A stretch of 34,012 nucleotides of DNA from a bacterium (lineage in GTDB: Bacteria > Bacillota > Limnochordia > DTU080 > RSA5), in NCBI GenBank assembly GCA_002919195.1, contig PKEU01000120.1:1-34012 (forward strand). Direction: 5' to 3'. Positions 3,410-30,974 of the stretch are shown here, one piece after another (positions within the stretch are counted from its first letter, which is position 1; every line of letters begins with the position of its first letter). A program made the translations under genes and the position numbers. The notes below the pieces were generated by a model. It was not told the origin of the DNA and searched no databases. It worked only from the letters and a program-made list of their open reading frames with translations.

Positions 3410-3437
3410 AGTTCAACAGGAGGAGTTCAACAGGAGG
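3410..3437. repeat. 14-bp perfect tandem duplication
   Basis: AGTTCAACAGGAGG occurs twice head to tail (3410-3423 and 3424-3437) with no mismatch. Confidence 0.9.
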
Positions 3438-3509
3438 TTAGTTATCGGTTACATCATGTGAATGCTCAAGGCTCCGACTGGCTCATAGGGACATGGGTTC
3501 AATCACGAT

Positions 3510-3563
3510 ACACGGTTAAATCACTCTACCCGGTTAGATCGTCAGACACGGTTAGATCATCAT
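3510..3563. repeat. 18-bp tandem repeat, three copies
   Basis: Units ACACGGTTAAATCACTCT (3510-3527), ACCCGGTTAGATCGTCAG (3528-3545) and ACACGGTTAGATCATCAT (3546-3563) share the core CGGTTARATC. The iteron-like layout upstream of a gene could be an operator, but the same style of array is found in non-promoter places in this window. Confidence 0.9.
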
Positions 3564-3567
3564 ACGA

Positions 3568-3597
3568 TAGGTGCGATGCATCTAGGTGCGATGCATC
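3568..3597. repeat. 15-bp perfect tandem duplication with ATGCAT
   Basis: TAGGTGCGATGCATC occurs at 3568-3582 and 3583-3597. It is followed by a partial third GCATGCATCGG. The units contain the palindrome GATGCATC. Confidence 0.9.
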
Positions 3598-3734
3598 GGC
3601 ATGCATCGGCCGTAGGTGATTTTCCATTGGTGCATTTGTCGTAGAAATTGCCCTGCTCAAGCAAGAAGATTGACTCCGTCAGCGAAATAGGTGGCGTGGC
3701 ATAGAATATCTCCTCATGGACGGGTGTTAACGGA

Positions 3735-4409
3735 ATGTATCGATTTGAAATCCATTGTCATACGGCGGAATCGAGCAGTTGTGGTCGGGTTAAAGCAGAG
3801 CGTCTCGTCGAGCTCTACGTGCAAGCGGGCTATGACGGGGTGGTGATCACCGACCACCTTAATCCCGACAACCCTCGAACGCTCCTCGAAAGGGATGGGG
3901 TGCCGGCCACCTTTGAAAACCAGGTCCAACGCCTGCTGGAGGGTTATCGCAAGGCCCGGGCGGCAGCGGGGGATCGGCTTGTGGTGCTCTATGGGACCGA
4001 GCTCCGTTTCGCAAACGATCCCAACGACTACCTCGTCTACGGGATGAGTGAAGAGATGCTCCTCGAGCACCCTGACATCGTCAGCTGGGGGATCCAGAAG
4101 TTCTCTCAGTACGCGAGAGAACACGGCCTCCTCGTGATCCATGCCCATCCATTTCGCAACAACATGAGGGTGATCGATCCCAAGTGGGTCGACATGGTCG
4201 AAGTGTATAACGGCCACCCGCGTCATAATTCCCGGAACGAGCTTGCGCTGCTGTGGGCGAGGATGCACGGAAAGCCGGGCTCTGCGGGCTCCGATTTTCA
4301 CCAAGAAGGCGATGAAGCTCGAGGCGGCGTCCTCTTGCCCGAGCGCCCCGAAACGATCCAAGAGTTTATCGAGCTGATGAGAGAACAACCCTTGCTCATC
4401 ACGCGGTAG
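3735..4409 (+). CDS. PHP-domain metal-dependent phosphoesterase
   Basis: 224 aa, a typical size for a stand-alone PHP protein. The metal-ligand motifs are all present in order: H7-C-H9 (EIHCHT), D40-H41 (ITDH), E89 (GTELRF), H136-A-H138 (IHAHPF) and D187-x-H189 (GSDFHQ). PHP proteins hydrolyse phosphoesters with two or three metal ions and are cytoplasmic. Substrates in this class include nucleoside bisphosphates (RNase AM/YciV type) and histidinol phosphate; which one applies is not readable here. ATG3735 has only a weak ACGGA upstream, but the strand-1 motif starts five residues later, so no shorter start is possible. No operon partner is present. Confidence 0.88.
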   Translation: MYRFEIHCHTAESSSCGRVKAERLVELYVQAGYDGVVITDHLNPDNPRTLLERDGVPATFENQVQRLLEGYRKARAAAGDRLVVLYGTELRFANDPNDYLVYGMSEEMLLEHPDIVSWGIQKFSQYAREHGLLVIHAHPFRNNMRVIDPKWVDMVEVYNGHPRHNSRNELALLWARMHGKPGSAGSDFHQEGDEARGGVLLPERPETIQEFIELMREQPLLITR

Positions 4410-4412
4410 GTA

Positions 4413-4516
4413 CCTTACAAAGGCACCTAACAAAGGCCCATTACAAAGGCACCTTACAATGGCGCCTTACGAAGGTAGCTTACGAAGGTAGCTAGCGAAG
4501 GTAGCTATCCAAAGAC
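4413..4516. repeat. 13-bp tandem array, eight units
   Basis: Starting four bases after the PHP stop codon, 13-bp units run without gaps: CCTTACAAAGGCA, CCTAACAAAGGCC, CATTACAAAGGCA, CCTTACAATGGCG, CCTTACGAAGGTA, GCTTACGAAGGTA, GCTAGCGAAGGTA and GCTATCCAAAGAC. Neighbouring units are most alike and divergence is graded along the array, as expected from stepwise slippage or duplication. It has no spacers, so it is not a CRISPR array. Confidence 0.93.
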
Positions 4517-4529
4517 GTCGGAAGAAAGT

Positions 4530-4556
4530 GGGCCGCTTGCTTTGCGCAGGCGGCCC
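4530..4556 (+). terminator. 11-bp hairpin after the 13-bp array
   Basis: GGGCCGCTTGC (4530-4540) pairs with GCAGGCGGCCC (4546-4556) with one G-U wobble and a 5-nt loop. There is no T-tract behind it. It probably ends the PHP transcript. Confidence 0.5.
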
Positions 4557-4694
4557 TCCCAAACATCATACTGTACAGAACATGATCGTGTGCACCCACA
4601 CAATGCCCCGCGTCTTTATTTTTTGTAGGCCCAGGTACCTCACTTCGGTGGAAGAACGCGACGGAAGACGCAAACCGAGGTGGGTCGTGTCGTT

Positions 4695-5930
4695 ATGAAT
4701 GAACGTGGCGCTCAAGCCTCCCGAGAGACAACGGAACAACCGACAAAGCGCGTCTCCCTCGGTAAGTTGATCGAGATTCTGTTCGTGGCTCTACGCCTTG
4801 GATTGACCTCGTTCGGCGGGCCCATCGCCCACCTCGGGTACTTTCGAGAAGAGTATGTCCAACGTCGCCAATGGCTCGATGACAAAGCCTACGCGGATAT
4901 CGTGGCGCTGTGTCAGTTCTTACCGGGACCCGCGAGCAGTCAGGTCGGTATCTCGATTGGGATGTTGCGCGGAGGCTACCTAGGCGGCGTTCTCGCTTGG
5001 CTGGGATTTACGTTGCCCTCTGCAGTCGCCTTGGCTTTGTTGGCTACGTTTCTCCAAGATTACGACGTAACCAGCTCAGGGTGGCTGCGGGGACTACTGA
5101 TCGTCGCGGTCGCTGTCGTCGCTCACGCTGTGTGGGGCATGGCGACGAAACTGACTCCCGATCGGGAGCGAGTAAGCGTTGCCATTTTAGCGGCAATTGT
5201 AACGCTCATGGTGCCAACGGCATCGGTCCAAATGCTCGTGATTGTGATTGGCGGCCTCTTTGGTTGGTTGTTCTTGCGGAACGTGCCCACGCCGGACGAG
5301 GATGATACCGTGGCTTTCCCACTAAGCCGCAAGGCCGCCGTTACGGCGTGGCTACTTTTCTTTAGCCTACTCATCGGACTCCCATTCGTTCGGCAAATCT
5401 ATCCGGCGAAATGGGTCGCGGTGCTCGACAGCTTTTACCGGGTTGGCAGCCTCGTCTTTGGCGGAGGCCATGTGGTGCTGCCGCTCCTGTCCAGTGAAGT
5501 CGTCGCCAACGGCTGGATCACGGAGGAACAGTTCCTCGCAGGATATGGCGCGGCCCAAGCTGTGCCAGGACCCCTGTTTACCTTTTCCGCCTATATCGGC
5601 GCGGCAATGGAAGGTTGGTTTCTGAGCGCTGTGGCGCTTGTGGGCGTCTTTGCGCCGTCGTTTCTACTGGTTATTGGCTTACTGCCCTTTTGGGACAGCA
5701 TCCGGCGGCGCGCCTCGTTCCGAGCGGTGTTAAGCGGGATTAACGCTGCCGTCGTCGGCATTCTGCTTGCAGCCCTTTACGATCCGATCTGGACAAAGGC
5801 GATTCATACACCGGCGGATTTGAGTCTTGCGTTGGTCGGTTTCGGCTTGCTCATGTTCTGGAAGGTACCCTCTTGGGCCGTGGTGCTGGTGATGGCTGCC
5901 GGTGGAATGATGATTGACGCCCTCATCTGA
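4695..5930 (+). CDS. chrA: Chromate efflux transporter, two-domain ChrA (CHR family)
   Basis: 411 aa from ATG4695, preferred over GTG4680 because GAGGTGGG lies ~10 nt before the ATG. Two homologous CHR halves are visible. The N-terminal half has LRLGLTSFGGPIAHLGYF and CQFLPGPASSQVGISIG. The C-terminal half has FYRVGSLVFGGGHVVLPLL and YGAAQAVPGPLFTFSAYIG. The repeated FGG(P/G)xxH and PGP signatures are family hallmarks. About ten membrane segments are evident. Long-chain ChrA proteins export chromate at the cytoplasmic membrane by an anion-coupled mechanism (family knowledge). No chrB regulator is adjacent. The gene is convergent with the next one, only 29 bp apart, with no visible terminator between them. 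Confidence 0.92.
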   Translation: MNERGAQASRETTEQPTKRVSLGKLIEILFVALRLGLTSFGGPIAHLGYFREEYVQRRQWLDDKAYADIVALCQFLPGPASSQVGISIGMLRGGYLGGVLAWLGFTLPSAVALALLATFLQDYDVTSSGWLRGLLIVAVAVVAHAVWGMATKLTPDRERVSVAILAAIVTLMVPTASVQMLVIVIGGLFGWLFLRNVPTPDEDDTVAFPLSRKAAVTAWLLFFSLLIGLPFVRQIYPAKWVAVLDSFYRVGSLVFGGGHVVLPLLSSEVVANGWITEEQFLAGYGAAQAVPGPLFTFSAYIGAAMEGWFLSAVALVGVFAPSFLLVIGLLPFWDSIRRRASFRAVLSGINAAVVGILLAALYDPIWTKAIHTPADLSLALVGFGLLMFWKVPSWAVVLVMAAGGMMIDALI

Positions 5931-5959
5931 CGCGAAGCCAACCCCAATCAGGCGCTGTG

Positions 5960-7039
5960 TTACGGACTCCAAATCGTGGCGGCGATGTAGCGCTCGCCCA
6001 GGGCGCTGTCGTTGAAGTAGTACACCGTCACCAGCTGGCCGTCGGCTCTTTCGACGGTCCTCGGGTAACCGATATCGTGATTGCCACCATCGTCACGCAA
6101 CACGATATCGGGCGACCAGGTGACGCCGTTATCCTCGCTCACCCGAGCCCGGATCCCAAAAGGCGGGTTTCTATAGCCGTACACCAGGCACAGGCGGCCG
6201 TCTCGCAGGAGGGTCAGCGAAGGAGGATTGCCGCCGTGCCCTGTGTCTTCGACGGGCCGTGAAAGGTAACGCCACGACTTTCCCAGATCCTGGGATTCGT
6301 AGAGGTCGATCCATGAATGCTGTTGCTGCCTGCAGCGCACGGCGACGAGGAGCTTCTCGCCTACCCGGGCGCTCGCGGGCATGATGGCGTAACCTTTGGG
6401 CTCAGGAGTGATCCAGCTCAAAAACTGAAACGAGCGGCACCCGTCGGTTGTCAAGGCGCAAAAGGGACGTCCTTCGCCGCCGTCGGATTTCGCAGCCGTC
6501 AAAAACAGCAGGCACTCGGTCCGCGATAGGACCTGGTAATCGGTGCGCGCGGCGATACCGGGCAAGCCAAACATGGGCAGCCGGTACGGCCCCATCCATT
6601 CCCGACAGCGGTTGGTCGAAACATAAAACCACGAAAACGCCCCGGCAGCCAACCCCGTCCGGCTGCACATCAGGGCAAAATCGGGATGTTGGAGGTTGAC
6701 GGGGTCCTGGTTTTCCGGGATGTCCTCTAAACGGACAGCCTGACCGGTCTGCAGCTCCGGGACAACGTGCTCATCGGCCGCAAGCCCTTTTCCGCCAGGG
6801 GCCTCGCACGGGGTAGGGATGACCTCCCACGTTTCACCGCCGTCCAGGGATCGAGCTTGCATCGGCTCGAACGGGCGCGTCTTGTCCCTCAAGTGAAATC
6901 GGTCCGCTTCGGGGTCGCTTCCCAGGTATCCTGCCGTAAAGCCGACAACGATCTCGTCGCCCCACGACCAAATGCCGTAATTGGCCGGCCAGCCGGCAAA
7001 GCGTCCCTTTTCTCGAAAGACCGTCACGTGCTTTTTCAA
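5960..7039 (-). CDS. Sialidase-like BNR/Asp-box protein (intracellular)
   Basis: 359 aa from TTG7039, chosen because GGGAGGT sits 6 nt upstream; GTG7054 would lie inside that ribosome site. At least three Asp-box-like motifs are seen (SLDGGETW, SQDLGKSW, SEDNGVTW), with the WPANYGIW N-terminal strand and a C-terminal DDGGNHDIGYPRTVERADG block. This suits a six-bladed propeller of the exo-alpha-sialidase superfamily. No signal peptide is present, so it would act in the cytoplasm. Many such proteins are not true sialidases, and the Arg triad cannot be assigned by eye. It may act on an imported glycoside; no transporter is directly linked. Confidence 0.75.
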   Translation of the reverse strand: MKKHVTVFREKGRFAGWPANYGIWSWGDEIVVGFTAGYLGSDPEADRFHLRDKTRPFEPMQARSLDGGETWEVIPTPCEAPGGKGLAADEHVVPELQTGQAVRLEDIPENQDPVNLQHPDFALMCSRTGLAAGAFSWFYVSTNRCREWMGPYRLPMFGLPGIAARTDYQVLSRTECLLFLTAAKSDGGEGRPFCALTTDGCRSFQFLSWITPEPKGYAIMPASARVGEKLLVAVRCRQQQHSWIDLYESQDLGKSWRYLSRPVEDTGHGGNPPSLTLLRDGRLCLVYGYRNPPFGIRARVSEDNGVTWSPDIVLRDDGGNHDIGYPRTVERADGQLVTVYYFNDSALGERYIAATIWSP

Positions 7040-7108
7040 GCGGCTACCTCCCACTCAGCGCGGCTCGAGACGTCCTCGCGTTAAAGTGCGCCGGGAAATG
7101 GTTTCGCA

Positions 7109-7292
7109 CGAACGTGCGCCTTGCGATGCTCTCCGTGTCAACGTGCGGATGGCGATGCCCTCAGGCCACCGTCCAGATGGCGATGTCTTCGCACCAACGT
7201 CCGGGCGGCGATGTCCCCGCACCACCGTCCAGACAGCGATGTCCCCCCGCCAGCGTCCAGGCGCCGATGGCCTCGTGTCAACGTCTGGACGG
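7109..7292. repeat. 28-bp tandem array, about six to seven units
   Basis: Units begin near 7109, 7138, 7166, 7194, 7222, 7250 and 7278 (the last partial). Each starts with CAACGTSCG/CACCGTCCA and carries GGCGATGTC in its middle. The first unit is 29 bp, the next five are 28 bp. The array fills the gap between the Sir2 gene and the sialidase-like gene and lies ahead of the latter on the minus strand. Unit identity is roughly 70-80 % by eye. Confidence 0.88.
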
Positions 7293-7337
7293 TCTTCTCG
7301 CGCAAACGAACCTGCAGTCTTCCATGAGCCTCGTTCT

Positions 7338-8111
7338 CTATTCGAATAAGCGCGCCAACACCTCCGCAGCCTTGCTTCGCACAACAATCTCCGCGACGCC
7401 GTCATAAGGAGTGGGCGTAAGGTTGAGAATCCACAAACGCGCTCCCTGCTCGAGCGCGATCTGGGGAAGAGAGGCCGCAGGGTACACTTGCAACGAGGTC
7501 CCGATCACCAGGAGGGCCTCGCAATTTTCAAGAGCGGTCTTCGCCTGGTAGAGAGCCTTTTCGGGAAGAAGCTCGCCAAAAAGCACGATCGCCGGGCGAA
7601 TCAGCCCGCCGCAGCGGCATCGAGGCAGCGAGGCGATGTCGTTAACGGGCTTTTTCAGCACCTCGACCGGATGAGGCCGGCCGCAGTCGTGACACCTGGC
7701 CTCCCTCAGTGAACCGTGGAGTTCGGCGACGTTTCGGCTGCCCGCCGCAGTGTGGAGCCCGTCGACGTTTTGCGTCACGATCCATTGGAGGCGGCCCTGC
7801 TTTTCGAGTTCGGCGAGGGCCCTGTGGCCAGCGTTGGGCTTCACCCGATCGAGCATTTCCAGCCGTGTCCGGTAAAACTCGTAGAAAAGAAGGGGGCGCT
7901 CAAGCAGGGCGTCGACGCTGGCGAGCTCTTCGGGCCGGTACCGGCTCCACAAGCCGTCGGGTGAGCGGAAGTCCGGCAGCCCCGACTCGGTACTCATGCC
8001 CGCGCCGGTCAATACGACGAGCCGTTCGACTTCTTGCAGTTCCTCGATCAGCCGATCTTCCAACTTCTTCACACGATCGTCCATGAAACGCTCTTCCATG
8101 CGATCTTCCAT
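7338..8111 (-). CDS. cobB: NAD-dependent protein deacylase, Sir2 family
   Basis: 257 aa from ATG8111. ATG8084, preceded by GGAAGAG, is an equally good or better start. The Sir2 motifs are in order: GAGMSTESGLPDFRS (36-50, NAD binding), TQNVDGLH (113-120), catalytic H132 in ELHGS, zinc ligands C140-x2-C143 and C165-x-C167, and GTSLQVYPAASLP (204-216). It would remove acetyl or acyl groups from protein lysines in the cytoplasm, consuming NAD+. The extra N-terminus (MEDRMEERFMDDR) is itself a threefold ~12-bp near-repeat, which favours the downstream start. It runs towards the sialidase-like gene on the same strand but is separated from it by the 28-bp array. Confidence 0.93.
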   Translation of the reverse strand: MEDRMEERFMDDRVKKLEDRLIEELQEVERLVVLTGAGMSTESGLPDFRSPDGLWSRYRPEELASVDALLERPLLFYEFYRTRLEMLDRVKPNAGHRALAELEKQGRLQWIVTQNVDGLHTAAGSRNVAELHGSLREARCHDCGRPHPVEVLKKPVNDIASLPRCRCGGLIRPAIVLFGELLPEKALYQAKTALENCEALLVIGTSLQVYPAASLPQIALEQGARLWILNLTPTPYDGVAEIVVRSKAAEVLARLFE

Positions 8112-8718
8112 GGCGCTTGGGACACGCCACGCCTACGGCGCGCCGAATGCTCCTTTCATAAGATTGTGACTGTATAGTGACTACAACCTCAATGGCTCGC
8201 AGGGGGTACCCACCGGGAGCAGGTACCCACAGGGAGCAGAGCGAATGTGCTCGGGACGCGCCCACAATCCGTATGCGGCGAAATCACGAATCTTTGTTCG
8301 AACCGATCGTAAGGGGAAAGTTCGAGACGCTGGGGAAGCTTTCCTTGTCTAAATGACAGCGCGCCTGCAACCGAGCGCAGATCGCCTCGGACGAGGTCCG
8401 GAATGCACCGCGTGCTTTGGGATGCGCAAAGGTGCACAGGGTCGGCGTTTTCGAGGCGGAACTTGGCGATTCGTTGTGGTCGATGTGCCGTTGCGGTCGC
8501 GGTCCCATTCTGGTCCCATTCTTCTGGGGCGATGTGATGATCCGTGTGGCGATTCACTCGGCTCGCTGGGCGGCCTACCTCGTTCGCTCCTCCTAGCTCG
8601 GTTGGTTCGTTCATTGACCCGTGCATTGGCCCGATCACCAGGTGGTTCAAACTTGGGAAGCTTCGTCGTCAGAGATGTCGCGTCCCACATTTCGCTGCCA
8701 GAGGAGGCCCGTGGTCCC
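8112..8718. other. 607-bp divergent gap, no gene
   Basis: This lies between the Sir2 gene (minus) and the kinase gene (plus). It contains a 17-bp tandem duplication (8205-8238) and an 11-bp duplication GGTCCCATTCT near 8500. The frame in front of the kinase is open back to 8353, but its translation (Arg/Gly/Ser-rich, no motif) does not look like protein. Minus-strand ORFs across 8189-8690 are likewise low-complexity. No clear promoter was seen. Confidence 0.55.
8205..8238. repeat. 17-bp tandem duplication
   Basis: GGTACCCACCGGGAGCA (8205-8221) is followed directly by GGTACCCACAGGGAGCA (8222-8238), with one mismatch. Confidence 0.9.
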
Positions 8719-10299: not shown

Positions 10300-11363
10300 C
10301 GAGCAATCCTCCACTGATCTCTTTCCGACGCGGGCTCCGCGTCACCCCTGCAGGTCGCTTTCGCCGTCTCTGTTCAAAAACGAGCTCTGCGTCGTACGGG
10401 GGAGCGCTCACCACATCCTGAATCGGAGAAGCCGACCACGTCCGCAATCGGAGACGCTGACCCCGCCCCCAGTCGGAAACGCTGACCACGCCTCCGTCGG
10501 ACACGCAGGCCCCGTCCCTCGTCGGAGACGCTGACTCCCGTCGCATCGGAACGCGAATCGCGTCCGTCGTCCTCTTCGCCTGGGTGATCACGTCTCCCTT
10601 GGGAAGCGCTCGGCTCGAAACGTCTCTTTGAGACGCTCACGGCCTGTTCGGCCAAATTCCCAACCGTAGATGTTTTTCCTTTGCCGAGGGGAAAAGGCTC
10701 CCGGGCGGCCGGTCGTGTGTCATGTGTCAATGAAGAAGTGAAAGCGCATCGGCCTCGACGTCAGCCGGCTGTCCGGAAAGTGCTCCGAACTCGCTTGTCT
10801 CCCGCCTGAACCGGTTCGCTCGTGGACCGACTCGTGGGCTGACGATACCAAAACGCCAGCTCACAAGGGGTTTCTCGACCGCCAAGCCGACCGCCAAGCC
10901 TCCGTGGTCCTTCCCTGCGCGTCACTTCGAAGCATCTTTCGGACAACCTCGCGCTTCTTAGGGGCAAAAATCGGACGACGACGCTTTGTTGCGGGCACAA
11001 AGCGGACGGCTACGCAGAGCAAAGTGCACCAAAGTGCAATCGCCAGGAACACGCTGGGCAAAAGTGAAATGGCAACAGCAGGTGCCCACGTCTTGTCGTT
11101 GCACCGAACCTACACGCGGCGGCGTTGCTGGAGTTTTGTTCCTAAGCGCGGCGATTCATGCATGCCGAAGCGAGGCTTCTCGAACGCTTGCTTTTCGCCG
11201 TACGCCTTGAGGGAGCCGATCCTGCATCGGTCGACCGATCCGGCCACGATCCAGCCAAAAAGGCGGGAGAGCATCTCAAGCGAGCGGGAAAAACGCTCCT
11301 TGCATTTAAGTTATCAATGAGAGCTACACAGCAATCAACGCGATCTTAAGCGCCAAGGAGGGG
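10300..11363. other. 1.06-kb gap without a recognisable gene
   Basis: Both strands were read. ORFs of up to 138 codons (10904-11320 plus; 10374-10730 minus) lack ribosome sites and have Arg/Ser-rich translations unlike folded proteins. A 25-bp tandem array (10421-10544) lies near the DUF456 promoter side. The element TTTCGGACAA at ~10937 matches one at ~9749. AAGGAGG at 11355 belongs to the next gene. No tRNA, IS or terminator was recognised. Confidence 0.5.
10421..10550. repeat. 25-bp tandem array, five to six units
   Basis: Units start at 10421, 10446, 10471, 10496, 10521 and (partial) 10545. Each opens with RTCGGARACGC and continues with TGACCACG-like sequence. Unit lengths are 25, 25, 25, 25 and 24 bp. 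The array lies upstream of the DUF456 gene on the minus strand. Confidence 0.88.
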
Positions 11364-12353
11364 ATGGTGTTGGAGTACCGCCAGCTGGGTTCGACTGAGC
11401 TAAAGGTGAGCGCGATCAGCCTGGGGACGTGGGCCATCGGCGGCGCGTGGGGGAAAGTGGACGACGAAGAGTCAATCCGCGCCATTTACCGGGCGATCGA
11501 CCTCGGCGTCAACTTCTTTGACACCGCCGATATCTACGGAGATGGGCGGAGCGAAGAGCTCCTCCGCAAGACGACGGCCGACAAAGCGGACGAGATCTTT
11601 ATCGCCACGAAGTTCTGCCGGGCGGGCGACATCCACGACCCCGCAAACTACTCAGAAAAGCAGGTGCGCGCCTATTGCGAAGGGAGCCTCAAGCGCCTTG
11701 GCAGAGAGCGCATCGACCTCTATCAGATCCATTGTCCGCCCACCGAGATCTTGCGGGACGGCTCGGTCTTTGAGGTGCTCGATAAACTCCAGCGGGAAGG
11801 CAAGATCCGCTACTACGGCGTCAGCGTCGAATCCGTAGAGCAAGGCCTGATCGCCATGGAGTATCCAGGCGTGAGGGCGCTGCAGGTGATCTTTAATATC
11901 TTTCGCCAGAAACTCATCGACGAACTTTTCCCGGTGGCCAAGGAAAAGGGCGTCGGCCTCCTTGCCCGGGTGCCCCTTGCTAGCGGCCTTTTGACCGGGA
12001 AGTTCACGAAAGAGAGCCGTTTCGCCGAGGACGACCACAGAAACTACAACCGGGACGGCGCTCACTTCAACGTGGGCGAGACCTTCGCCGGCCTGCCCTT
12101 TGAGAAAGGCGTGGAACTCGCCGACCAGCTCCGCTGGATCGCCGAAGGCCGCGGTACTATGGCCCGGGCGGCGCTGCGGTGGATCCTCCATTTCGACGCG
12201 ATCAGCTGCGCGATCCCGGGCTTCAAAACGGTGGCTCAAGTGGAGGAAAACGTCGCCGCCGTCAACACGCCGCCTTTTTCCGACGAAGAGCTCAAGAGGC
12301 TCTCGGAGTTTTATCACAACGAAGTGAAACAATACATCCGGGGGCCGTATTGA
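11364..12353 (+). CDS. Aldo/keto reductase
   Basis: 329 aa. AAGGAGG (11355-11361) is so close to ATG11364 (2 nt) that GTG11367 or TTG11370 is the more likely true start; TTG11370 would begin with the usual EYRQLGSTELKVS. The catalytic tetrad of the (beta/alpha)8 AKR fold is present: D53 and Y58 (FFDTADIYG), K83 (ATKF) and H123 (LYQIHCPP). The C-terminal part has ARVPLASGLLTGKF and a CAIPGFKTVAQVEENV NADP-binding-like segment. It should reduce a carbonyl substrate with NADPH in the cytosol. It resembles the AKR11/YajO-like bacterial groups. The physiological substrate is unknown, and there is no operon partner. Confidence 0.92.
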   Translation: MVLEYRQLGSTELKVSAISLGTWAIGGAWGKVDDEESIRAIYRAIDLGVNFFDTADIYGDGRSEELLRKTTADKADEIFIATKFCRAGDIHDPANYSEKQVRAYCEGSLKRLGRERIDLYQIHCPPTEILRDGSVFEVLDKLQREGKIRYYGVSVESVEQGLIAMEYPGVRALQVIFNIFRQKLIDELFPVAKEKGVGLLARVPLASGLLTGKFTKESRFAEDDHRNYNRDGAHFNVGETFAGLPFEKGVELADQLRWIAEGRGTMARAALRWILHFDAISCAIPGFKTVAQVEENVAAVNTPPFSDEELKRLSEFYHNEVKQYIRGPY

Positions 12354-12363
12354 GGTGTGTTAC

Positions 12364-12393: not shown

Positions 12394-12404
12394 AACAGTC
12401 CCAG

Positions 12405-12501
12405 CAGACGGTCCCAACTTTACAGCGCCAACAATCCAGTCCCAACAAACGGTCGCAACGATGCGGTCCCAACGATCCAATGCCAACGATCCAGTCCCAA
12501 T
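12405..12501. repeat. 14-bp tandem array, seven units
   Basis: Consecutive units are CAGACGGTCCCAAC, TTTACAGCGCCAAC, AATCCAGTCCCAAC, AAACGGTCGCAAC (13), GATGCGGTCCCAAC, GATCCAATGCCAAC and GATCCAGTCCCAAT. The 3' half (TCCCAAC) is best kept. The array fills the gap between two convergent genes, so a promoter or operator role is unlikely. Confidence 0.92.
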
Positions 12502-12590
12502 GATCAGGCCGGTCTCACCGTCTGATCGGTCCCCCGTTCTTCCGATCAAGGCCTCGTCGCTCTGCCTTGCGTCGTCTCGTACCCGCCTTT

Positions 12591-15197
12591 TCACATCGCG
12601 CCAAACCAGCCGCCGTTTCGGACCACCTCGCGGCGGAGTTGCCACGTCGCCTCGACGATGTTTTTCAGCGCAGGGATCACCTCGTCCCAATGCCTGGTCT
12701 TGAGCCCGCAGTCGGGATTGACCCAGAGCTTCTGTACGGGAAAGACTTTGAGCGCCGTCTCCAGGTGCCGGCGCACCTCGTCGACGGTGGGCACCCGGGG
12801 GCTGTGGATGTCGTAGACGCCGGGACCGATTTCGTTGGGGTAGTGAAAATCCGCGAAGGCGTCGAGGAGTTCCATGCCGGAGCGGGCTGCTTCGATGGAG
12901 ATCACGTCGGCGTCGAGCTCGGCGATGGCATGGACGATGTCGTTAAACTCCGAATAACACATGTGCGTGTGGATTTGGGTCCCATCTTTCACTCCAGCGG
13001 TCACGAGGCGAAAGCACTCCACGGCCCAGCGGAGATAGGTGTCCCAGTCTTTCCGTCTCAGGGGCAACCCTTCTCGGAGGGCGGGTTCGTCCACCTGGAT
13101 GACGCGGACGCCGGCGGCCTCCAGGTCCAGCACTTCGTCGCGCAAGGCCAAGGCGATCTGCCGGCACGTCACTTCCCGGGGTTGGTCGTCTCGCACAAAC
13201 GACCACTGGAGAATCGTTACCGGTCCTGTCAGCATGCCTTTCACCGGCTTTTGAGTCAGCGATTGGGCGAACGTGGCCCAGCGCACGGTCATGGGCTCCG
13301 GCCGCCACACGTCGCCGTAGATGATGGGCGGCTTGACGCACCGGGTCCCGTAACTTTGGACCCACCCCGACGACGTGACGGCGCACCCTGCGAGCAGTTC
13401 GCCGAAGTACTCCACCATGTCGTTGCGCTCAAACTCGCCGTGCACCAGCACGTCGAGGCCGATCTCTTCTTGCCGCCGGATGGCGTCGCGAATCCACCCC
13501 TCGATCTTCGCGTCGTACGCTTCTCGGGAGATCTTTCCCGCCCGCGCTTGAGCCCTGGCCTCGCGCACCTCTTGGGTCTGGGGAAGCGACCCGATGGTCG
13601 TCGTGGGAAGGACCGGCAGTCGGAGGCGAGCTTGCTGTTTCGCAGCCCTCTCGTGATACCGGCTAGGCCGCCGCAAGTCGGCTTCCGAAACCGCCGCGAG
13701 CCGTTGAGCGACTTCAGGGCGGTGGATCCGGGGCGACGTCCGCCGGGAGGCGATGGCCCGTGCGTTGGCTTCGAAAAGCCAGCGGACGTTGTCGGCGGCG
13801 CCGTTGGCCGCAGCGGTGAGCGCCGCCACTTCGTAAAGCTTTTGAGTGGCAAACGCGACCCACGTTTTGAGCTCTTGGTCGAGCTTCGTCTCAAGCCGCA
13901 GGTCGACGGGCACGTGTAAAAGCGAGCACGAGGGGGCGACCCAGACTCGTTCCGAGCCCAAGGCGCGTTGGGCCCTCTTGATGGTCTCCAGCGCGGCGTC
14001 GAGGTCGGTGATCCACACGTTGCGGCCGTTGACGACCCCCAGCGAGAGCGAAAGCCTCTCGGGCACGCCTTGCGCCAGGGCTTGATCGAGGTCGCCGGTT
14101 CCTTCTGAAAGGTCGAGGTGCAGCGCAGCTACGGGGAGCGAGAGCGCGGTCTTGAGATTAGGGCCCAGCGGCCCAAAGTAGGTAGCCAGCATGATGTTGA
14201 GGCCCGGCGCGGCTTCGACCAGGCGCTGGTAGGTCCGTGTCAGCGCCGCGAGCTCATCGTCGGACAAATCGAGGGCGAGGATGGGTTCGTCGAGCTGCAC
14301 CCACTCCGCTCCGGCCGCCGCGAGCCTCCGCAAGAGTTCCTCGTAGACGGGGAGGAGGCGATCCAACAGCTCCAGAGGCGCGCTCACGAGACGGCCCTCG
14401 CCCTGCCGCGCGCTCCCGGGCGCATGAGCACGGGCCTGTCCTTGGGCCGCGCCATGGATCCGCGCTTTGAGGTTTGTCCCATCAAGGTTGTGCGCTCCCT
14501 GGGTTTGCTCGCTCCGGACCCGCGCTCCACGGGTCTCCGTCTCCCGGGCTTGGGCGCCCCGGTACTGTGCCTCCCGGGTCAGGTCGGCCCGGACCTCCGC
14601 TTCACGGGTCTCCGCCTCCCGGGCTTGGTCCCCCCCGACCTGCGGCTTCCGAACCTGCGCTTCCTCTCGCCCAGCGGCACGCACCTTCGAAAGCCGCAAA
14701 AACGTGACGGGCCCGACGAGCACTGGCTTGGTCTTGATCCCGATCTTGAGCGCCTCGTGAAAGGCCTGGAGCGGCTTGTCGCCCACGAGGCGAAACTCCT
14801 GGTCTGGGCTGAGTTCCGGCACGATGTAGTGGTAGTTAGTGTTAAACCACTTGGTCATCTCGAGCGGGGGAACACCACCGTCTTCGCCGTGCCGCCCCCG
14901 GGCCATGGCAAAGTAGGTGTCTAATGGGACGGGTCCGCCGGTCCAGCCGAAGCGCTCGGGAATCGCCCCGACGAGCACCGCCGTGTCCAGGACGTGGTCG
15001 TACAAAGAGAAGTCGTTGGAAGGAATGAGCGAGATGCCGGCCTCCCGCTGCAGTTCCCAGTGGCGGCGCTGTAGCTCGAGCGCTGCTTCCTGCAGCTTAT
15101 CTTCATCGATCTCGCCCGCCCAATAGCTTTCGACGGCCCGCTTGAGCTCCCGGTTTTTGCCGATGCGGGGAAATCCCAGGTTGGTCGATCGAACCAC
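12591..15197 (-). CDS. metE: Cobalamin-independent methionine synthase MetE with in-frame repeat insertion
   Basis: 868 aa from GTG15197, chosen because GGAGG lies 8 nt upstream and the conserved STNLGFPRIGKNRELK follows at once; GTG15212 sits on the ribosome site. It transfers the methyl group of 5-methyltetrahydropteroyl-triglutamate to homocysteine. The C-terminal zinc ligands are visible: His and Cys in HTHMCYSE, Glu in IEAARSG and Cys in NPDCGLKTR. VLVGPVTFLRLS and EWVQLDEPIL mark the N-terminal barrel. MetE is usually ~750-770 aa. The excess is a ~96-aa hydrophilic insertion (DNA ~14385-14672) between FLRLSKVRAA and LELLDRLLPVYEELL, made of 5-aa units. The flanking motifs are intact, so the enzyme is probably active. 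It is second in a SAM-riboswitch operon. Confidence 0.95.
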   Translation of the reverse strand: MVRSTNLGFPRIGKNRELKRAVESYWAGEIDEDKLQEAALELQRRHWELQREAGISLIPSNDFSLYDHVLDTAVLVGAIPERFGWTGGPVPLDTYFAMARGRHGEDGGVPPLEMTKWFNTNYHYIVPELSPDQEFRLVGDKPLQAFHEALKIGIKTKPVLVGPVTFLRLSKVRAAGREEAQVRKPQVGGDQAREAETREAEVRADLTREAQYRGAQARETETRGARVRSEQTQGAHNLDGTNLKARIHGAAQGQARAHAPGSARQGEGRLVSAPLELLDRLLPVYEELLRRLAAAGAEWVQLDEPILALDLSDDELAALTRTYQRLVEAAPGLNIMLATYFGPLGPNLKTALSLPVAALHLDLSEGTGDLDQALAQGVPERLSLSLGVVNGRNVWITDLDAALETIKRAQRALGSERVWVAPSCSLLHVPVDLRLETKLDQELKTWVAFATQKLYEVAALTAAANGAADNVRWLFEANARAIASRRTSPRIHRPEVAQRLAAVSEADLRRPSRYHERAAKQQARLRLPVLPTTTIGSLPQTQEVREARAQARAGKISREAYDAKIEGWIRDAIRRQEEIGLDVLVHGEFERNDMVEYFGELLAGCAVTSSGWVQSYGTRCVKPPIIYGDVWRPEPMTVRWATFAQSLTQKPVKGMLTGPVTILQWSFVRDDQPREVTCRQIALALRDEVLDLEAAGVRVIQVDEPALREGLPLRRKDWDTYLRWAVECFRLVTAGVKDGTQIHTHMCYSEFNDIVHAIAELDADVISIEAARSGMELLDAFADFHYPNEIGPGVYDIHSPRVPTVDEVRRHLETALKVFPVQKLWVNPDCGLKTRHWDEVIPALKNIVEATWQLRREVVRNGGWFGAM
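14385..14672 (-). repeat. Degenerate 15-bp tandem array inserted in metE
   Basis: Read in the gene's frame, the insertion splits into 5-aa (15-bp) units: GREEA, QVRKP, QVGGD, QAREA, ETREA, EVRAD, LTREA, QYRGA, QARET, ETRGA, RVRSE, QTQGA, with weaker units after. At DNA level the middle units share a GAGACCCGTGRAGCG-like consensus. Nothing corresponding exists at this position in typical MetE (recalled E. coli length and sequence). Confidence 0.85.
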
Positions 15198-15234
15198 TTT
15201 TTCATCCTCCACCTTTCAGGTCCACCCTTCGAAC

Positions 15235-27727: not shown

Positions 27728-27887
27728 TCGCCTGGCCACCCTGTCACAGCGGGCCAGTCCAGGATGGGATATCCGTCCCAACCAAGTGAGGAGGGACGCC
27801 CCTCGGGTCATCTCGCGATTTGTGTTAAGCTAGAGTTGGTAGCTGCTGCCATCCGCGAGACACATCCGACAAGGAGGTACCTGGCAT

Positions 27888-28097
27888 ATGAAGATGGAGA
27901 TCGTGAAGCAGGAGCTGGAAGCCTGGGGCGAACTGATGATCGCGACGGCTAACGGTGAGCGCTATGAGATTCACCTTGGTGACACCACTTTCGATTTCGA
28001 AAAGCGGGTGATCACCCTCAAGACGCCGACCGCGATCTATGAGATCGACGGCGACGCCGTGGAGAGCATCGAAAAGCACTACGGCCACAAGGATTGA
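27888..28097 (+). CDS. Small conserved-looking protein of unknown function (69 aa)
   Basis: ATG27888 follows AAGGAGGT by about 9 nt, one of the best ribosome sites in the window. The protein is acidic, soluble and strand-rich: WGELMIATANGERYEIHLGD, then TTFDFEKRVITLKTP and YEIDGDAVESIEKHYGHKD. It has no signal, Cys or membrane segment. The alternating pattern suggests a small beta-sheet domain. Strong translation signals and a long hairpin behind it suggest a single-gene transcript. I do not recognise a named family. Confidence 0.75.
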   Translation: MKMEIVKQELEAWGELMIATANGERYEIHLGDTTFDFEKRVITLKTPTAIYEIDGDAVESIEKHYGHKD

Positions 28098-28487
28098 CCA
28101 GTTGAGCGGAATTAAGCCACATCCGGTTGATTGAGCGCGACCGGGGCTCGAGGCAAGCGGTTTCAAAGGCCGTAAGCCCAAGCCCTTGCGGAAACAACGC
28201 TCCCAGCATGACGGACAATGCCATGTTGGGGGCGTTTCCATTTGAAGAGGGGGTCTCAGCCCCGATTGGGCCCCTAGCTCAGGAATTGTTTAAAAAGACG
28301 GAGTAGAGTTAGTCGTATGAAGGATGAAAGTAAACGGTTGAGTAGAAACTTTATAGCATACCGAAGGGGGGTGTAGAGACAGCTGTGAATTTAAAGCGTT
28401 CGTGCAGTCCTCAACTCGTGTAAGTCGTCGCGACGGAGTCACGGTCATCGATCACTGGCAGACAAGGACAGGTGAGGAGGATCGCTG
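28098..28487. other. 390-bp gap: hairpin, then leader of the second sugar-binding protein
   Basis: After the hairpin at 28196-28236 the DNA becomes AT-richer (28270-28400), as expected of a promoter zone for the solute-binding gene. A convincing -35/-10 pair was not found. CGTCGCGACG (28426-28435) is a 10-bp palindrome with a central CG like many LacI-family operators, 53 nt before the start codon. No ORF is present. Confidence 0.45.
28196..28236 (+). terminator. 15-bp hairpin downstream of the 69-aa gene
   Basis: AACGCTCCCAGCATG (28196-28210) pairs with CATGTTGGGGGCGTT (28222-28236), including two G-U pairs, with an 11-nt loop. Outer GGAAA and TTCC extend the stem past a 2-nt bulge. The following TTTCCATTTG is a weak U-tract. 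Confidence 0.65.
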
Positions 28488-29753
28488 GTGCGGTTTCGTC
28501 GCAAGATAGCGGCTGCAATCTTCTCCCTCGTGATGACGCTCGTTTTGACTGGCAGTTGTCTGGCTCAGCAGGTGACGCTTCGGGCGGCAACGTGGGATGG
28601 CGGTCAAGGCTTAGAGATCATCAAGATGGTTTTTCAGGAGTTTGAGAAGCTCAATCCCGATATTCGAATCGAAGTCGAGTCATTTTCGTCGTATAACGAT
28701 CGAATGGTTTTGCAGTTCACCACGGGCAACGCACCAGACATCTTCATGATGAGCCGGGACTGGCAGTTTATCCCCTTCGTCGAAGCGGGTTTCGTCGAGC
28801 CTCTCAACGAGTACATGGAACGCGACGGATACGACCCAACACTGATCTTCTATCCCGCCATCTTGTCGGCGCACGAGCTGGACGGGAAGTACTACTCATT
28901 GCCCAAAGACATGGCGAGCGCGGCGACCTACTACAACTCTGAGCTTTTCGCCGAAACGGGCCTGCCGGACCCCGATCCTCTTTGGAACTGGTCGGATTTC
29001 GTTACCGCGGCTCAGCGTTTAACTCGCGATCGTAACGGAGATGGAGTTCCCGACCAGTATGGTTATTACGTCAACCTGCTTGACGTCTGGGCTACGTACC
29101 CCTTTATTTACTCCAATGGCGGCGGCTTCTTGAACCCCGAGAAAGATCGAGCTTCCGGGTATGTCAACTCGCCAGAGACGATCGGCAGCATCGAGGCACT
29201 GATGTCGCTCGTTGAATCGGGCTATGCAGCGACGCCTCAAAGCGTCGAGCAGTTTGGCGGGACCACCCAAGCTTTCTTAAACGACAATTTGGCGATGATG
29301 ACAACCGGCCCGTGGTCCATGTCCACCTTTGAGAGTGCCGGCAAGTCATTCGCGACTGTGATGAACCCGCAAATGAAGCAGCCAGCGAGCGTTCATGCGT
29401 CGGCCGGTTGGGCTATCTCGGCGTATACGCCTCACAAAGAAGAGGCGTGGAAAGTGCTCAAGTTTATCACGGGCGAAGTTGGCCATCGCATCATGGCGGA
29501 AACGGGATGGGCTTTGCCGGCAGTTCCGGCAGTGGCCGATGAGCTAGGTTACACGTCCATCCCGACGAAGCGAGCCTTTTACCACGCCCTGGAATACAGC
29601 AAACTTTTGCCCGGGGGTTTGCTGGCCACTTGGCAAGAAGATGTGGGTGATTTTCTCGGTGAGGCCTTTCAAGCCATTATGAATGGCACGATGGCCGTAA
29701 CGTCCGCTTTGGAAGAGGCGGCAAGACGCATCGACGCTGCATTGCGAGATTAG
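28488..29753 (+). CDS. Extracellular sugar-binding protein (family 1), second system
   Basis: 421 aa from GTG28488, with GAGGAGG ~7 nt upstream. Signal peptide: MRFRRK, then IAAAIFSLVMTLVLTGSCLA, with cleavage likely after LA before QQV. The cysteine context TGSC is a poor lipobox. The mature domain shows VTLRAATWDGGQGLEIIKM, FTTGNAPDIFMMSRDW, YYNSELFAETGLPDPDPLWN and DRNGDGVPDQYGYYVN, all common in CUT1 binding proteins. Base composition is lower in GC than its neighbours. No permease lies on the same strand. The minus-strand permease/ATPase genes 1.3-5.5 kb away, or those of the 24-kb cluster, may serve it. Confidence 0.92.
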   Translation: MRFRRKIAAAIFSLVMTLVLTGSCLAQQVTLRAATWDGGQGLEIIKMVFQEFEKLNPDIRIEVESFSSYNDRMVLQFTTGNAPDIFMMSRDWQFIPFVEAGFVEPLNEYMERDGYDPTLIFYPAILSAHELDGKYYSLPKDMASAATYYNSELFAETGLPDPDPLWNWSDFVTAAQRLTRDRNGDGVPDQYGYYVNLLDVWATYPFIYSNGGGFLNPEKDRASGYVNSPETIGSIEALMSLVESGYAATPQSVEQFGGTTQAFLNDNLAMMTTGPWSMSTFESAGKSFATVMNPQMKQPASVHASAGWAISAYTPHKEEAWKVLKFITGEVGHRIMAETGWALPAVPAVADELGYTSIPTKRAFYHALEYSKLLPGGLLATWQEDVGDFLGEAFQAIMNGTMAVTSALEEAARRIDAALRD

Positions 29754-29800
29754 CGCATGATGAGTGATTGGGCAAATCGTAGATCGCCCTACGTGGGACA

Positions 29801-29828
29801 AAGCCGGGGCCGTGCGAGGCCCCGGTTT
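29801..29828 (+). terminator. Intrinsic terminator after the second sugar-binding protein
   Basis: CCGGGGCC (29804-29811) and GGCCCCGG (29818-29825) form a perfect 8-bp stem with loop GTGCGA, preceded by AAAG and followed by TTTCT. The dehydrogenase downstream is therefore probably a separate transcript or depends on read-through. Confidence 0.8.
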
Positions 29829-29878
29829 CTCCGTTCGCAGCGGATCCTCTGATCTCCTGACGATGGGAGGCACTGGAA

Positions 29879-30940
29879 ATGCCCCGCAGACTGGCTTGGA
29901 AGCGGCCAGGCAAAGTGGAAGTTCTCGAGTATCAAGATCGCGAGCTGCAGGAAGATGAAGTCCTGGTCAAGACGGAGTATGCCTCGGGAAAGCACGGGAC
30001 CACGCTCGCTTTGTTTGAAAACGTCAATTTCGAAGGCAAGCGGTTTGACCCCGCGATGCGCATTTTTCTCGACGCCGATGACGCCGGTGGGCCTGCCGGT
30101 GGTGAGCCACAAAACTTAGGCACCACCGGCGTCGGCACCGTTATCCAAGTGGGTTCGGGCGTTACCCGGTGGAAAGAAGGCGACCGGGTCTTTGGCCGGA
30201 TGGACACCCGGGAGACCAACATCTGCAAAGCGGACGACCTGTGGGAACTGAGCGATCTCGATCCCCTGGAAGCCCTCTGCATCGAACCGGCGTATGTGGC
30301 CTTTCACGCCGTGAGAGAGGCCAATGTGCGCTACGGCGATACGGTAGCTGTCATCGGACTGGGGGCCATCGGTCTCCTCGCGGTGCAAATGGCACACCAA
30401 TGCGGTGCCGAGCTCGTCATTGCGGTGGATCCCTTGGAAAAGCGAAGAGATTGGGCCCAACGGCACGGGGCGAACTACGTGCTCGATCCCCGTCAGGGCG
30501 ATCCTGCCCTTGAGATTCACAAGCTGACTGGCGGGCCGGGAGTGGACGTCGCGATTGAAGTTGCGGGGCGGACGGAGGCGCTGGAAACCGCGATCCGGAG
30601 CACCCGCGTTGGCGGGACCGTCTGTTCCGCCGGCTTTTACCAAGGCGAAGCCAAGGGGCTCTGGCTCGGCAGGGAATGGCATCACAACCGCTTGACGATG
30701 GTCGTGCCCCACGGGTGCGGTTGGGGTCATCCGCCCCGCGACTACCCGCGCTGGACAGAAAAGCGGGCCTACGACGCGATCGTGAGCCTGATGCGCCAGG
30801 GCAAGCTGCAAGCCGACGGGCTGATCGACCCCGTGGTGCCTCTCGAAAAAGGCCCGGAAGTCTTCCGCCTGATTCAGGAAAACCCGGGCCAGGTGATCAA
30901 GTACGCTATCCGGTTTGAGTCCTATGAGCCCCGGTCATGA
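29879..30940 (+). CDS. Zinc-type medium-chain dehydrogenase/reductase (MDR)
   Basis: 353 aa from ATG29879, behind GGGAGG. It has a GroES-like N-terminal half and a Rossmann half with TVAVIGLGAIGLLAVQMA (155-172) and VDP at the end of the second strand, suggesting NAD(H). The position where most zinc MDRs have the first catalytic Cys reads YASGKHGTTLAL with no Cys, and the GHE motif is absent. It is closer to a subgroup annotated as zinc-binding or threonine-dehydrogenase-like that oxidises sugars or polyols in ABC sugar operons. Its place next to sugar importers fits a sugar or cyclitol dehydrogenase. The last codons lie in a 13-bp tandem array. Confidence 0.83.
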   Translation: MPRRLAWKRPGKVEVLEYQDRELQEDEVLVKTEYASGKHGTTLALFENVNFEGKRFDPAMRIFLDADDAGGPAGGEPQNLGTTGVGTVIQVGSGVTRWKEGDRVFGRMDTRETNICKADDLWELSDLDPLEALCIEPAYVAFHAVREANVRYGDTVAVIGLGAIGLLAVQMAHQCGAELVIAVDPLEKRRDWAQRHGANYVLDPRQGDPALEIHKLTGGPGVDVAIEVAGRTEALETAIRSTRVGGTVCSAGFYQGEAKGLWLGREWHHNRLTMVVPHGCGWGHPPRDYPRWTEKRAYDAIVSLMRQGKLQADGLIDPVVPLEKGPEVFRLIQENPGQVIKYAIRFESYEPRS

Positions 30941-30974
30941 GGCCGGGCCATGAGTCCGGGTCATGAGGCCGGGT
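30923..30974. repeat. 13-bp tandem array across the dehydrogenase stop codon
   Basis: Units TATGAGCCCCGGT (30923-30935), CATGAGGCCGGGC (30936-30948), CATGAGTCCGGGT (30949-30961) and CATGAGGCCGGGT (30962-30974) are continuous. The dehydrogenase TGA (30938-30940) is inside the second unit, so the array begins within coding sequence and expands into the gap. Confidence 0.92.

What the first reader, a model, noticed from the sequence alone, without database searches (positions are those of the whole stretch)
3410..30974. Short tandem arrays with unrelated units scattered through the window
At least ten arrays (3410, 3510, 3568, 4413, 7109, 8205, 10421, 12405, 14385, 30923, plus 1166) have units of 13-18 bp or 25-28 bp. 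Each has a different sequence, with adjacent units most alike. They occur in convergent as well as divergent gaps, after stops, in coding frames and in an RNA stem. No common element, spacer or transposase explains them. A lineage-specific slippage or templated-duplication process is a reasonable hypothesis.
Basis: partly seen in the sequence, partly recalled or inferred. Interest (0 to 1): 0.78.

Follow-up and report, generated by a model that had tools for sequence, protein, structure and literature searches.

The report
Nuclease genes ringed by tandem repeats
The short repeats in this bacterial DNA are not spread evenly but crowd within about ten kilobases of copies of one selfish-looking DNA-cutting gene, which suggests, without yet proving, that repair of the enzyme's cuts stutters the nearby sequence.

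Summary
The arrays are real: 11 at TRF score 50 or more, against 0.25 per dinucleotide shuffle.

In 704 kb of this genome sampled away from one gene family, density is 0.72 per 10 kb, as in unrelated bacteria (0.77). mutS and mutL matches exist; no reverse transcriptase was found.

Its product has a RepA-initiator-like domain fused to an I-Bth0305I-like homing-endonuclease fold; its 3' part is at window 1-378. Density is about 10 per 10 kb within 1 kb of such genes and 2.7 at 7-10 kb. Found in this genome, the link was then tested in four others: combined p 1.4e-5, three of four individually significant. Counted in intergenic DNA alone it weakens outside this genome (p 0.04 to 0.57).

Best reading: the nuclease nicks or breaks DNA near its own gene, and end-joining with fill-in makes tandem duplications. 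The association is shown; causation is inferred. Main rival: both collect in gene-loose regions.

The parts
1..378 (+). 3' part of a RepA-like/EDxHD-fold nuclease gene; the contig begins inside the gene
   Evidence: G000:C18:1-366, 55% aa identity to the C65 copy; D..E.NG.QH..D..K residues present in alignment A1; 92.6% DNA identity over 376 bp to the C181 copy
1152..1316 (+). 36-bp array, 4.6 copies, inside a DUF4388 gene (593-2209)
   Evidence: score 211; DUF4388 Pfam hit at E 2.6e-15. My gene caller missed this gene, so searches count the array as intergenic
3410..3437 (.). 14-bp x 2.0 array, intergenic
3496..3565 (.). 18-bp x 3.9 array, intergenic
3568..3597 (.). 15-bp x 2.0 array, intergenic
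4408..4506 (.). 13-bp array beginning in the stop codon of a PHP-domain gene
   Evidence: PHP gene 3735-4409
7139..7275 (.). 28-bp x 4.5 array between two genes that both lie on the minus strand
   Evidence: genes 5960-7054 (-) and 7338-8111 (-)
8205..8239 (.). 17-bp x 2.1 array, intergenic
10410..10554 (.). 25-bp array, intergenic
10876..10900 (.).
   Evidence: among the 11 merged arrays
12396..12505 (.). 14-bp array in the convergent gap between the aldo/keto reductase and metE genes
   Evidence: genes 11364-12353 (+) and 12591-15212 (-)
14364..14660 (-). degenerate repeat-built stretch inside metE
   Evidence: 78% direct repeat inside it; alignment to one relative needs 100 gap columns, mostly around residues 150-290
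30924..30974 (.). 13-bp x 3.9 array overlapping the end of an ADH-like gene (29879-30940); the only array at score 50 or more in the last 21 kb
   Evidence: the name ADH-like is by eye

Best explanation
The arrays are products of local, sequence-independent tandem duplication centred on chromosomal copies of a stand-alone nuclease gene. The protein has an N-terminal winged-helix domain like plasmid RepA initiators and a C-terminal homing-endonuclease (I-Bth0305I/EDxHD) fold. Most likely mechanism (inferred): the enzyme makes offset nicks or staggered breaks in DNA near its own gene; fill-in and Ku-type end joining duplicates the segment between the cuts; repeated rounds and slippage build arrays of any unit sequence. 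In coding DNA mostly frame-keeping products survive. Shown: array excess around the genes, decay with distance, predicted fold, low dN/dS between two copies, presence of Ku. Inferred: that the nuclease is the cause, that it acts in cis, that it nicks, and that end joining is the route.
For: Density near the gene versus held control stretches of the same genome (window left out): G000 23 in 43 kb vs 51 in 704 kb (p 1.4e-11), G004 62 in 124 kb vs 9 in 54 kb (p 4.7e-4), G003 4 in 22 kb vs 0 in 54 kb (p 0.007), G034 30 in 48 kb vs 4 in 20 kb (p 0.015). Without the discovery genome: Fisher p 1.4e-5 over four genomes; 17 vs 26 stretches, medians 3.9 vs 0.5, p 2.4e-5. Decay from 9.7 to 2.7 per 10 kb between 0-1 and 7-10 kb. 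Within-locus gradient with coding/non-coding class kept: p 0.006. Excess holds in both contig-length classes of G000 and within low and high intergenic-fraction windows of G000 (1.5 vs 0.18 and 2.83 vs 0.67 arrays per 4 kb). 14 of 25 nuclease genes have an array within 200 bp, against 63 of 241 other genes in the same stretches and 52 of 1001 control genes. First of 19 gene families in G000 by local array density. dN 0.027, dS 0.27 between the shared parts of two copies. Ku in 8 of 8 genomes. Paired nicks giving tandem duplications by end joining is published for mouse cells (PMC5730883, abstract and passages).
Against: All evidence is correlative, and no cleavage was tested. Counted on intergenic DNA only, the excess is p 1.3e-7 in G000 but only 0.044 (G004), 0.055 (G003), 0.084 (G034) and 0.57 (G001) elsewhere; on coding DNA only, 0.15, 0.056, no arrays at all in G003, 0.029 and 0.23 for G000, G004, G003, G034 and G001. 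G001 shows no significant excess on any count (3 in 20 kb vs 26 in 310 kb, p 0.26) and reverses at TRF thresholds 40 and 80. Two copies with the motif, L255 and L261 on short contigs, have no array. Array-rich stretches exist without the gene: L118 and L119 in G000, L123 in G001 (6 in 20 kb), and L031 and L034 among 59 unrelated loci. For three window genes (ChrA, SIR2, AKR) the G001 counterparts also have arrays nearby (2, 1, 2). Within-locus decay of the 100 intergenic arrays alone is weak (p 0.08). Controls in G003, G004 and G034 are 3, 3 and 1 stretches.
Confidence: 0.43

Rival explanations
1. Shared tolerance: nuclease genes and arrays both accumulate in gene-loose, fast-changing parts of the chromosome, and neither causes the other.
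For: Nuclease stretches are more intergenic (0.21 vs 0.13 in G004, 0.25 vs 0.11 in G003). In G000, intergenic-array density correlates with intergenic fraction over 60 stretches (rho 0.59). Counted per intergenic base, the excess outside G000 is only marginal genome by genome. Some array-rich stretches lack the gene. Counterparts of three window genes also have arrays nearby in G001.
Against: Per intergenic base the G000 excess is 15.1 vs 2.7 per 10 kb (p 1.3e-7), and the direction is the same in all five genomes with controls. It persists in 4-kb windows split by intergenic fraction (pooled, 91 within genome). Coding arrays go the same way in four of five genomes, one significantly, and lie nearer the gene than chance within loci (p 0.004). 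Gene-loose controls such as L168 and L112 have no intergenic array.
Confidence: 0.34
2. Reverse direction: the mobile gene lands in or is kept at pre-existing arrays, for instance because its RepA-like domain binds iteron-like repeats.
For: The RepA_N-nuclease chimera Odn needs iterons to cut (PMC8263062, passages). 14 of 25 genes have an array within 200 bp.
Against: Array units share no clear motif. The excess extends to about 10 kb rather than only at the insertion point. Density elsewhere in G000 is at background, so a rich supply of targets is not seen.
Confidence: 0.15
3. A lineage-specific slippage or templated-duplication process acting on the whole genome.
For: Units are unrelated between arrays and similar within them.
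Against: 51 arrays in 704 kb away from the gene, 0.72 per 10 kb, against 0.77 in mixed phyla. mutS and mutL matches present. No reverse transcriptase match.
Confidence: 0.04
4. Assembly or binning artefact in a fragmented assembly.
For: 219 contigs; short control contigs have more arrays than long ones (1.98 vs 0.49 per 10 kb).
Against: The excess holds within both contig-length strata and in other assemblies. One contig has dense and sparse parts. 44 of 46 coding arrays near nucleases have periods divisible by three (35 of 44 in controls).
Confidence: 0.04

Closest known systems
Odn and related RepA_N-T5orf172 nucleases of phages (PMC8263062, PMC10448857; passages seen)
   Same: RepA-type initiator DNA-binding domain fused to a homing-endonuclease-type nuclease domain
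   Different: Nuclease domain here resembles the I-Bth0305I (EDxHD) fold rather than T5orf172; genes are in bacterial contigs, several per genome, with array halos; no iteron target is known
I-Bth0305I, EDxHD homing endonucleases
   Same: Catalytic-domain fold (3r3p: Z 8.0, rmsd 3.0, 94 residues); a PHROG homing-endonuclease profile matches 16 of 17 members at E up to 0.1, best 4e-11
   Different: N-terminal part is a RepA-like winged helix; no intron or target gene was identified here
Bacterial minisatellites / VNTR loci
   Same: Short tandem units, degenerate, intergenic or inside genes
   Different: Usually treated as independent loci (recall); here many unrelated arrays crowd around one gene family
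TAACTGA intergenic repeats of Beggiatoaceae (passages in PMC4853749)
   Same: Direct repeats abundant in a bacterial genome
   Different: There one heptamer recurs; here every array has its own unit
Tandem duplications from paired nicks repaired by end joining (PMC5730883; abstract and passages seen)
   Same: Duplication at breaks with protruding ends, with repeated rounds giving second and third duplications
   Different: Shown in mouse cells with engineered nickases, not with a natural bacterial nuclease

Membership tests
RepA_N-nuclease chimera (Odn type) | RepA_N-type initiator domain at the N-terminus | tested here: met
   Fold only: 4pql_B Z 13.2, rmsd 2.1, 93 residues aligned. By sequence, HTH_36 matches 14 of 17 members; no family called RepA_N is among the 25 of 40 Pfam families listed
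RepA_N-nuclease chimera (Odn type) | T5orf172 (GIY-YIG) nuclease domain | tested here: inconclusive
   Leans to not met: the C-terminal part aligns with the I-Bth0305I catalytic domain, and the full Pfam table of the first member shows no T5orf172; for the other 16 only 25 of 40 families were listed
RepA_N-nuclease chimera (Odn type) | Iteron-dependent cleavage of a replication origin | not testable with these tools
   Needs purified protein
EDxHD homing endonuclease | Vsr/I-Bth0305I-like catalytic fold | tested here: met
   3r3p_B Z 8.0, rmsd 3.0, 94 residues (the tool calls Z below 8 middling, so this is borderline alone); Foldseek viral matches include proteins named VSR endonuclease, DUF2726 and homing endonuclease; PHROG homing-endonuclease profile in 16 of 17 members
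EDxHD homing endonuclease | Conserved acidic catalytic residues | tested here: inconclusive
   D152 and K190 are invariant and E162, N164, G165, Q167, H168, D187 nearly so in 17 members, but they were not mapped one by one on I-Bth0305I
EDxHD homing endonuclease | Homing: copying of its gene into a cut cognate site | not tested
   Copies are dispersed and DNA similarity between C18 and C181 stops at the gene end, but no empty site was examined
Minisatellite / VNTR | Head-to-tail short units | tested here: met
Minisatellite / VNTR | Copy number varies among strains | not testable with these tools
   No second genome of the genus was among the 40 relatives listed
CRISPR array | One repeat separated by unique spacers | tested here: not met
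   Units are contiguous and differ between arrays

The most novel reading that the evidence does not exclude
A chromosomal, multi-copy RepA-like/EDxHD nuclease gene is a resident local mutator: it continually creates short tandem duplications in a halo of about 10 kb around itself, inside genes and between them, giving its host zones of rapid length variation that move with the gene.
Probability: 0.32. Interest if true: 0.88.

Novelty: new variant of a known kind. Interest (0 to 1): 0.7.

Why it matters
Why some bacterial regions fill with unrelated minisatellites has, to my knowledge, no general answer. Here a single gene family predicts where many of them are, in several genomes. If causal, it would be a natural enzyme that writes tandem duplications into nearby DNA: a testable origin for repeat-built protein inserts, longer intergenic gaps and local hypervariability, and a possible laboratory tool for making duplications. 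Even if not causal, the gene is a usable marker of array-rich zones. Nothing in the listings of my ten literature searches described this link; I saw listings, abstract starts and passages only, and none of the searches asked exactly for it.

Tried and rejected
Genome-wide slippage: rejected, since background away from the nuclease is ordinary in the quarter of the genome sampled. Missing mismatch repair: mutS and mutL family matches lie side by side on C115, the MutS frame (595 codons from base 2) being cut by the contig start. Reverse transcriptase: none at E 1e-3 in G000, while 3 of 14 control genomes rang. Contaminant contigs: considered; the window itself has dense and sparse parts. Shared motif at arrays: 5- and 6-mers tested, best pooled z 3.6 among about two thousand 6-mers, with different top words in each genome. 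Transposons as cause: rve and DDE_Tnp_1 matches are few (3 and 1 in G000), and only one match in the five genomes searched falls in a held stretch, L138 with no array; too few for a real control. Viral homologues as an outgroup: 110 arrays in 802 kb (1.37 per 10 kb), with no viral baseline. Plasmid collection: no match; phage collection: 4 partial matches of one region at 33% identity. Rfam: no match. Naming the organism: not achieved. A class-level guess (Limnochordia) rests on recall of genome sizes and comes from no call.

The OpuC-type operon comparison first looked like a clean natural experiment (four genes with 4, 1, 1, 2 arrays within 1.5 kb in G000 and none in G001). It is weaker than that: overlapping windows count five distinct G000 arrays, and G001 has three arrays starting 1.6 kb beyond the operon's end, just outside the cut. 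The operon name is by eye.

Weak points of the counts: L122 (all N) and L209 (holds a nuclease fragment; 3 arrays in 20 kb) were left out of both groups. Mixed-phyla controls are the 59 of 80 metE loci of 15 kb or more. Control stretches in G003, G004 and G034 were picked because they held aldo/keto-reductase-like hits, not at random. G020 and G028 have no controls. The gene caller was my own script and missed at least DUF4388. Of the five G000 nuclease contigs, C65 came from the first sample taken without regard to the gene, the window was given, and C67, C173 and C181 were fetched because of the gene.
Full report
Observation. TRF finds 11 merged arrays at score 50 or more in the 34-kb window; 60 dinucleotide shuffles average 0.25. 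The arrays are not evenly scattered: 10 of 11 lie in the first 12.6 kb (p 3.6e-4, cut chosen after seeing the data). Units are contiguous and differ between arrays.

Is the whole genome like this? The window is one contig (C18) of an unnamed assembly, G000, of 3.13 Mb in 219 contigs. I sampled about 800 kb of it in 60 stretches. Arrays cluster in a few contigs: intergenic arrays per intergenic base are over-dispersed (chi-square 111, 59 df, p 5e-5). In the first 40 stretches, 27 have no intergenic array. Unrelated bacteria, the 59 of 80 metE loci of 15 kb or more from mixed phyla, average 0.77 arrays per 10 kb. Ten other genomes of the class or order, each with 1 to 6 stretches, range from 0 to 1.25.

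The common factor. The first sample held one array-rich contig over 10 kb, C65 (11 arrays in 16.8 kb). By eye, it carries a gene whose product resembles the truncated frame at the very start of the window. A genome search found six places: C65, C173, C67, C181, C18 (the window) and a 53-residue fragment on C21. All five substantial copies lie among the nine densest of the 60 stretches. An all-against-all protein comparison found no other family, among those in three or more stretches, confined to the nine array-rich ones. Among 19 families present in three or more stretches, local array density is highest for this one: 9.35 per 10 kb within 3 kb. The next, at 6.62, has a member on C65 beside a copy.

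Test in other genomes. The gene matched in 12 of 60 genomes, G000 included, at one to ten places each. I fetched 20 stretches with 21 gene copies from six other genomes. Control stretches were already held for four of these. Arrays per 10 kb near the gene versus control: G004 4.99 vs 1.67 (62 in 124 kb, 9 in 54 kb); G003 1.84 vs 0 (4 in 22 kb, 0 in 54 kb); G034 6.20 vs 2.00 (30 in 48 kb, 4 in 20 kb); G001 1.50 vs 0.84 (3 in 20 kb, 26 in 310 kb, not significant). G000 without the window: 5.34 vs 0.72 (23 in 43 kb, 51 in 704 kb). Leaving out G000, where the idea arose, the combined p is 1.4e-5, and the stretch-level test, 17 against 26, gives p 2.4e-5. Thresholds of 40, 60 and 80 give the same direction except in G001, which reverses at 40 and 80. 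G020 and G028, without controls, show 2.35 and 2.81.

Gradient. Pooled over 25 stretches including the window, density per 10 kb falls with distance from the gene: 9.7 (0-0.5 kb), 9.7 (0.5-1), 5.0 (1-2), 3.8 (2-3), 5.0 (3-5), 3.5 (5-7), 2.7 (7-10), 2.8 (10-15; 1.1 without the window), 0.5 (15-35, window only). Part of this reflects looser gene spacing: intergenic fraction is 0.55 within 1 kb and about 0.2 beyond 2 kb. With each array re-placed at random in its own locus and class, observed arrays are still nearer (p 0.006). This comes mainly from coding arrays (p 0.004, n 46) and is weak for intergenic ones (p 0.08, n 100). Fourteen of 25 genes have an array within 200 bp, against 63 of 241 other genes in the same stretches and 52 of 1001 control genes.

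Only tolerance of loose regions? Pooled over genomes, 4-kb windows matched on intergenic fraction have 2.4 to 6 times more arrays near the gene, and coding arrays fall from 4.97 per 10 kb within 1 kb to 1.39 at 7.5-10 kb against 0.45 in controls. That pooling mixes genomes. Within genomes (window left out), intergenic density near the gene versus control is 15.1 vs 2.7 in G000 (p 1.3e-7), 14.3 vs 5.7 in G004 (p 0.044), 7.3 vs 0 in G003 (p 0.055), 12.8 vs 5.5 in G034 (p 0.084) and 3.5 vs 2.8 in G001 (p 0.57). Coding density is 1.0 vs 0.42 (p 0.15), 2.5 vs 1.1 (p 0.056), 0 vs 0, 3.3 vs 0 (p 0.029) and 1.2 vs 0.49 (p 0.23) in the same order. So the direction is consistent, but outside G000 the proof against mere tolerance is thin. 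Near the gene 44 of 46 coding arrays have periods divisible by three, against 35 of 44 in controls; coding sequence itself favours such periods.

Orthologues in G001. Of 88 G000-G001 gene pairs in held stretches, the 81 whose G000 member is away from the nuclease have equal array counts nearby (means 0.14 and 0.15), while the 7 near it have 2.57 in G000 and 0.71 in G001. The four syntenic genes of an OpuC-type operon, 3.4 to 7.2 kb from the C65 nuclease, account for five distinct arrays in G000 and none within 1.5 kb in G001; but G001 has three arrays starting 1.6 kb beyond that operon. Three window genes without synteny have arrays in both genomes (5, 2, 3 and 2, 1, 2). G001's single nuclease gene is on another contig.

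The gene. An alignment of 17 members shows invariant or nearly invariant D152, E162, N164-G165, Q167-H168, D187 and K190. The AlphaFold2 model has mean pLDDT 90. Residues 1-93 match a plasmid initiator N-terminal domain (4pql, Z 13.2, rmsd 2.1; related entries are titled 'initiator' and 'Rep-DNA complex'; that these are staphylococcal RepA is recalled). Residues 111-224 match the catalytic domain of homing endonuclease I-Bth0305I (3r3p, Z 8.0, rmsd 3.0, 94 residues). At E up to 0.1, a PHROG homing-endonuclease profile matches 16 of 17 members and a replication-initiation profile 10 of 17. The shared 125 codons of two copies in G000 differ with dN 0.027 and dS 0.27, which suggests purifying selection. 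DNA similarity between those copies stops at the gene's end, as for a stand-alone mobile gene. The family is patchy: 28 of 398 genomes drawn from the phylum at E 1e-15. That search scored at most six candidates per genome, and one single-contig genome, G395, reached six.

How it probably works. Inference: offset nicks or a staggered break near the gene, filled in and joined, duplicate the sequence between the cuts, whatever it is; later rounds and slippage lengthen it. Engineered paired nicks do this in mouse cells through Ku-dependent joining, including second and third duplications (PMC5730883, abstract and passages). Ku is present in all eight genomes checked, seven carriers and one non-carrier, so the route is available but not specific. 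Action near the gene could come from the RepA-like domain binding close by, or from local capture of the protein; neither was tested. Mismatch-repair matches are present and no reverse transcriptase matched.

Nearest known. The RepA_N-T5orf172 nuclease Odn of phage ICP1 has the same plan with a different nuclease domain, and cuts iteron-bearing origins (PMC8263062 and PMC10448857, passages). I-Bth0305I supplies the fold (PMC3943268, passages). Minisatellites supply the array type. The combination, with array halos on chromosomes, appeared in none of the listings of my ten literature searches.

Verdict. Arrays: real. Association with the nuclease: strong in G000 and significant in three of four other genomes, from limited sampling and small control sets. 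Causation: more likely than any single rival, unproven.

Noticed in passing
L252:9198-11197 (G004:C120): Two nuclease genes in tandem; the second has lost the E.NG.QH motif and may be a catalytically dead partner or regulator.
   Followed up: no
window 12591-15212; L111:12770-14170; L208:618-3707: Ordinary enzymes (MetE; by eye a NagA-like deacetylase and a large glycosidase-like protein) carry repeat-built stretches in contigs that hold nuclease copies.
   Followed up: partly
L118 and L119 (G000:C135, C145): Array-rich short contigs (4 in 7.1 kb and 6 in 6.4 kb) with no nuclease gene or remnant at E 1e-3; a copy could lie beyond the contig ends.
   Followed up: partly
L123 (G001:C7:55000-74999): The densest G001 stretch (6 arrays in 20 kb) has no nuclease match at E 1e-3, yet holds the orthologue of the window's aldo/keto reductase.
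   Followed up: partly
L031 and L034: Two of 59 unrelated control loci (Xanthomonas massiliensis, an Acidobacteria assembly) have 10 arrays in 22 kb each without this nuclease.
   Followed up: no
G395 (single 3.6-Mb contig): At least six copies of the nuclease family in a one-contig genome of the same phylum: the best place for a whole-genome test.
   Followed up: no
window 2517-3248: An outer-membrane beta-barrel protein match (PF13505, E 1.9e-9), notable if the host is Firmicutes-like, which is a guess from recall.
   Followed up: no
window 16713-16760, L171:11320-11368, L179:4614-4662: A dispersed repeat of about 48 bp, 94-98% identical, shared by three contigs of this genome.
   Followed up: no
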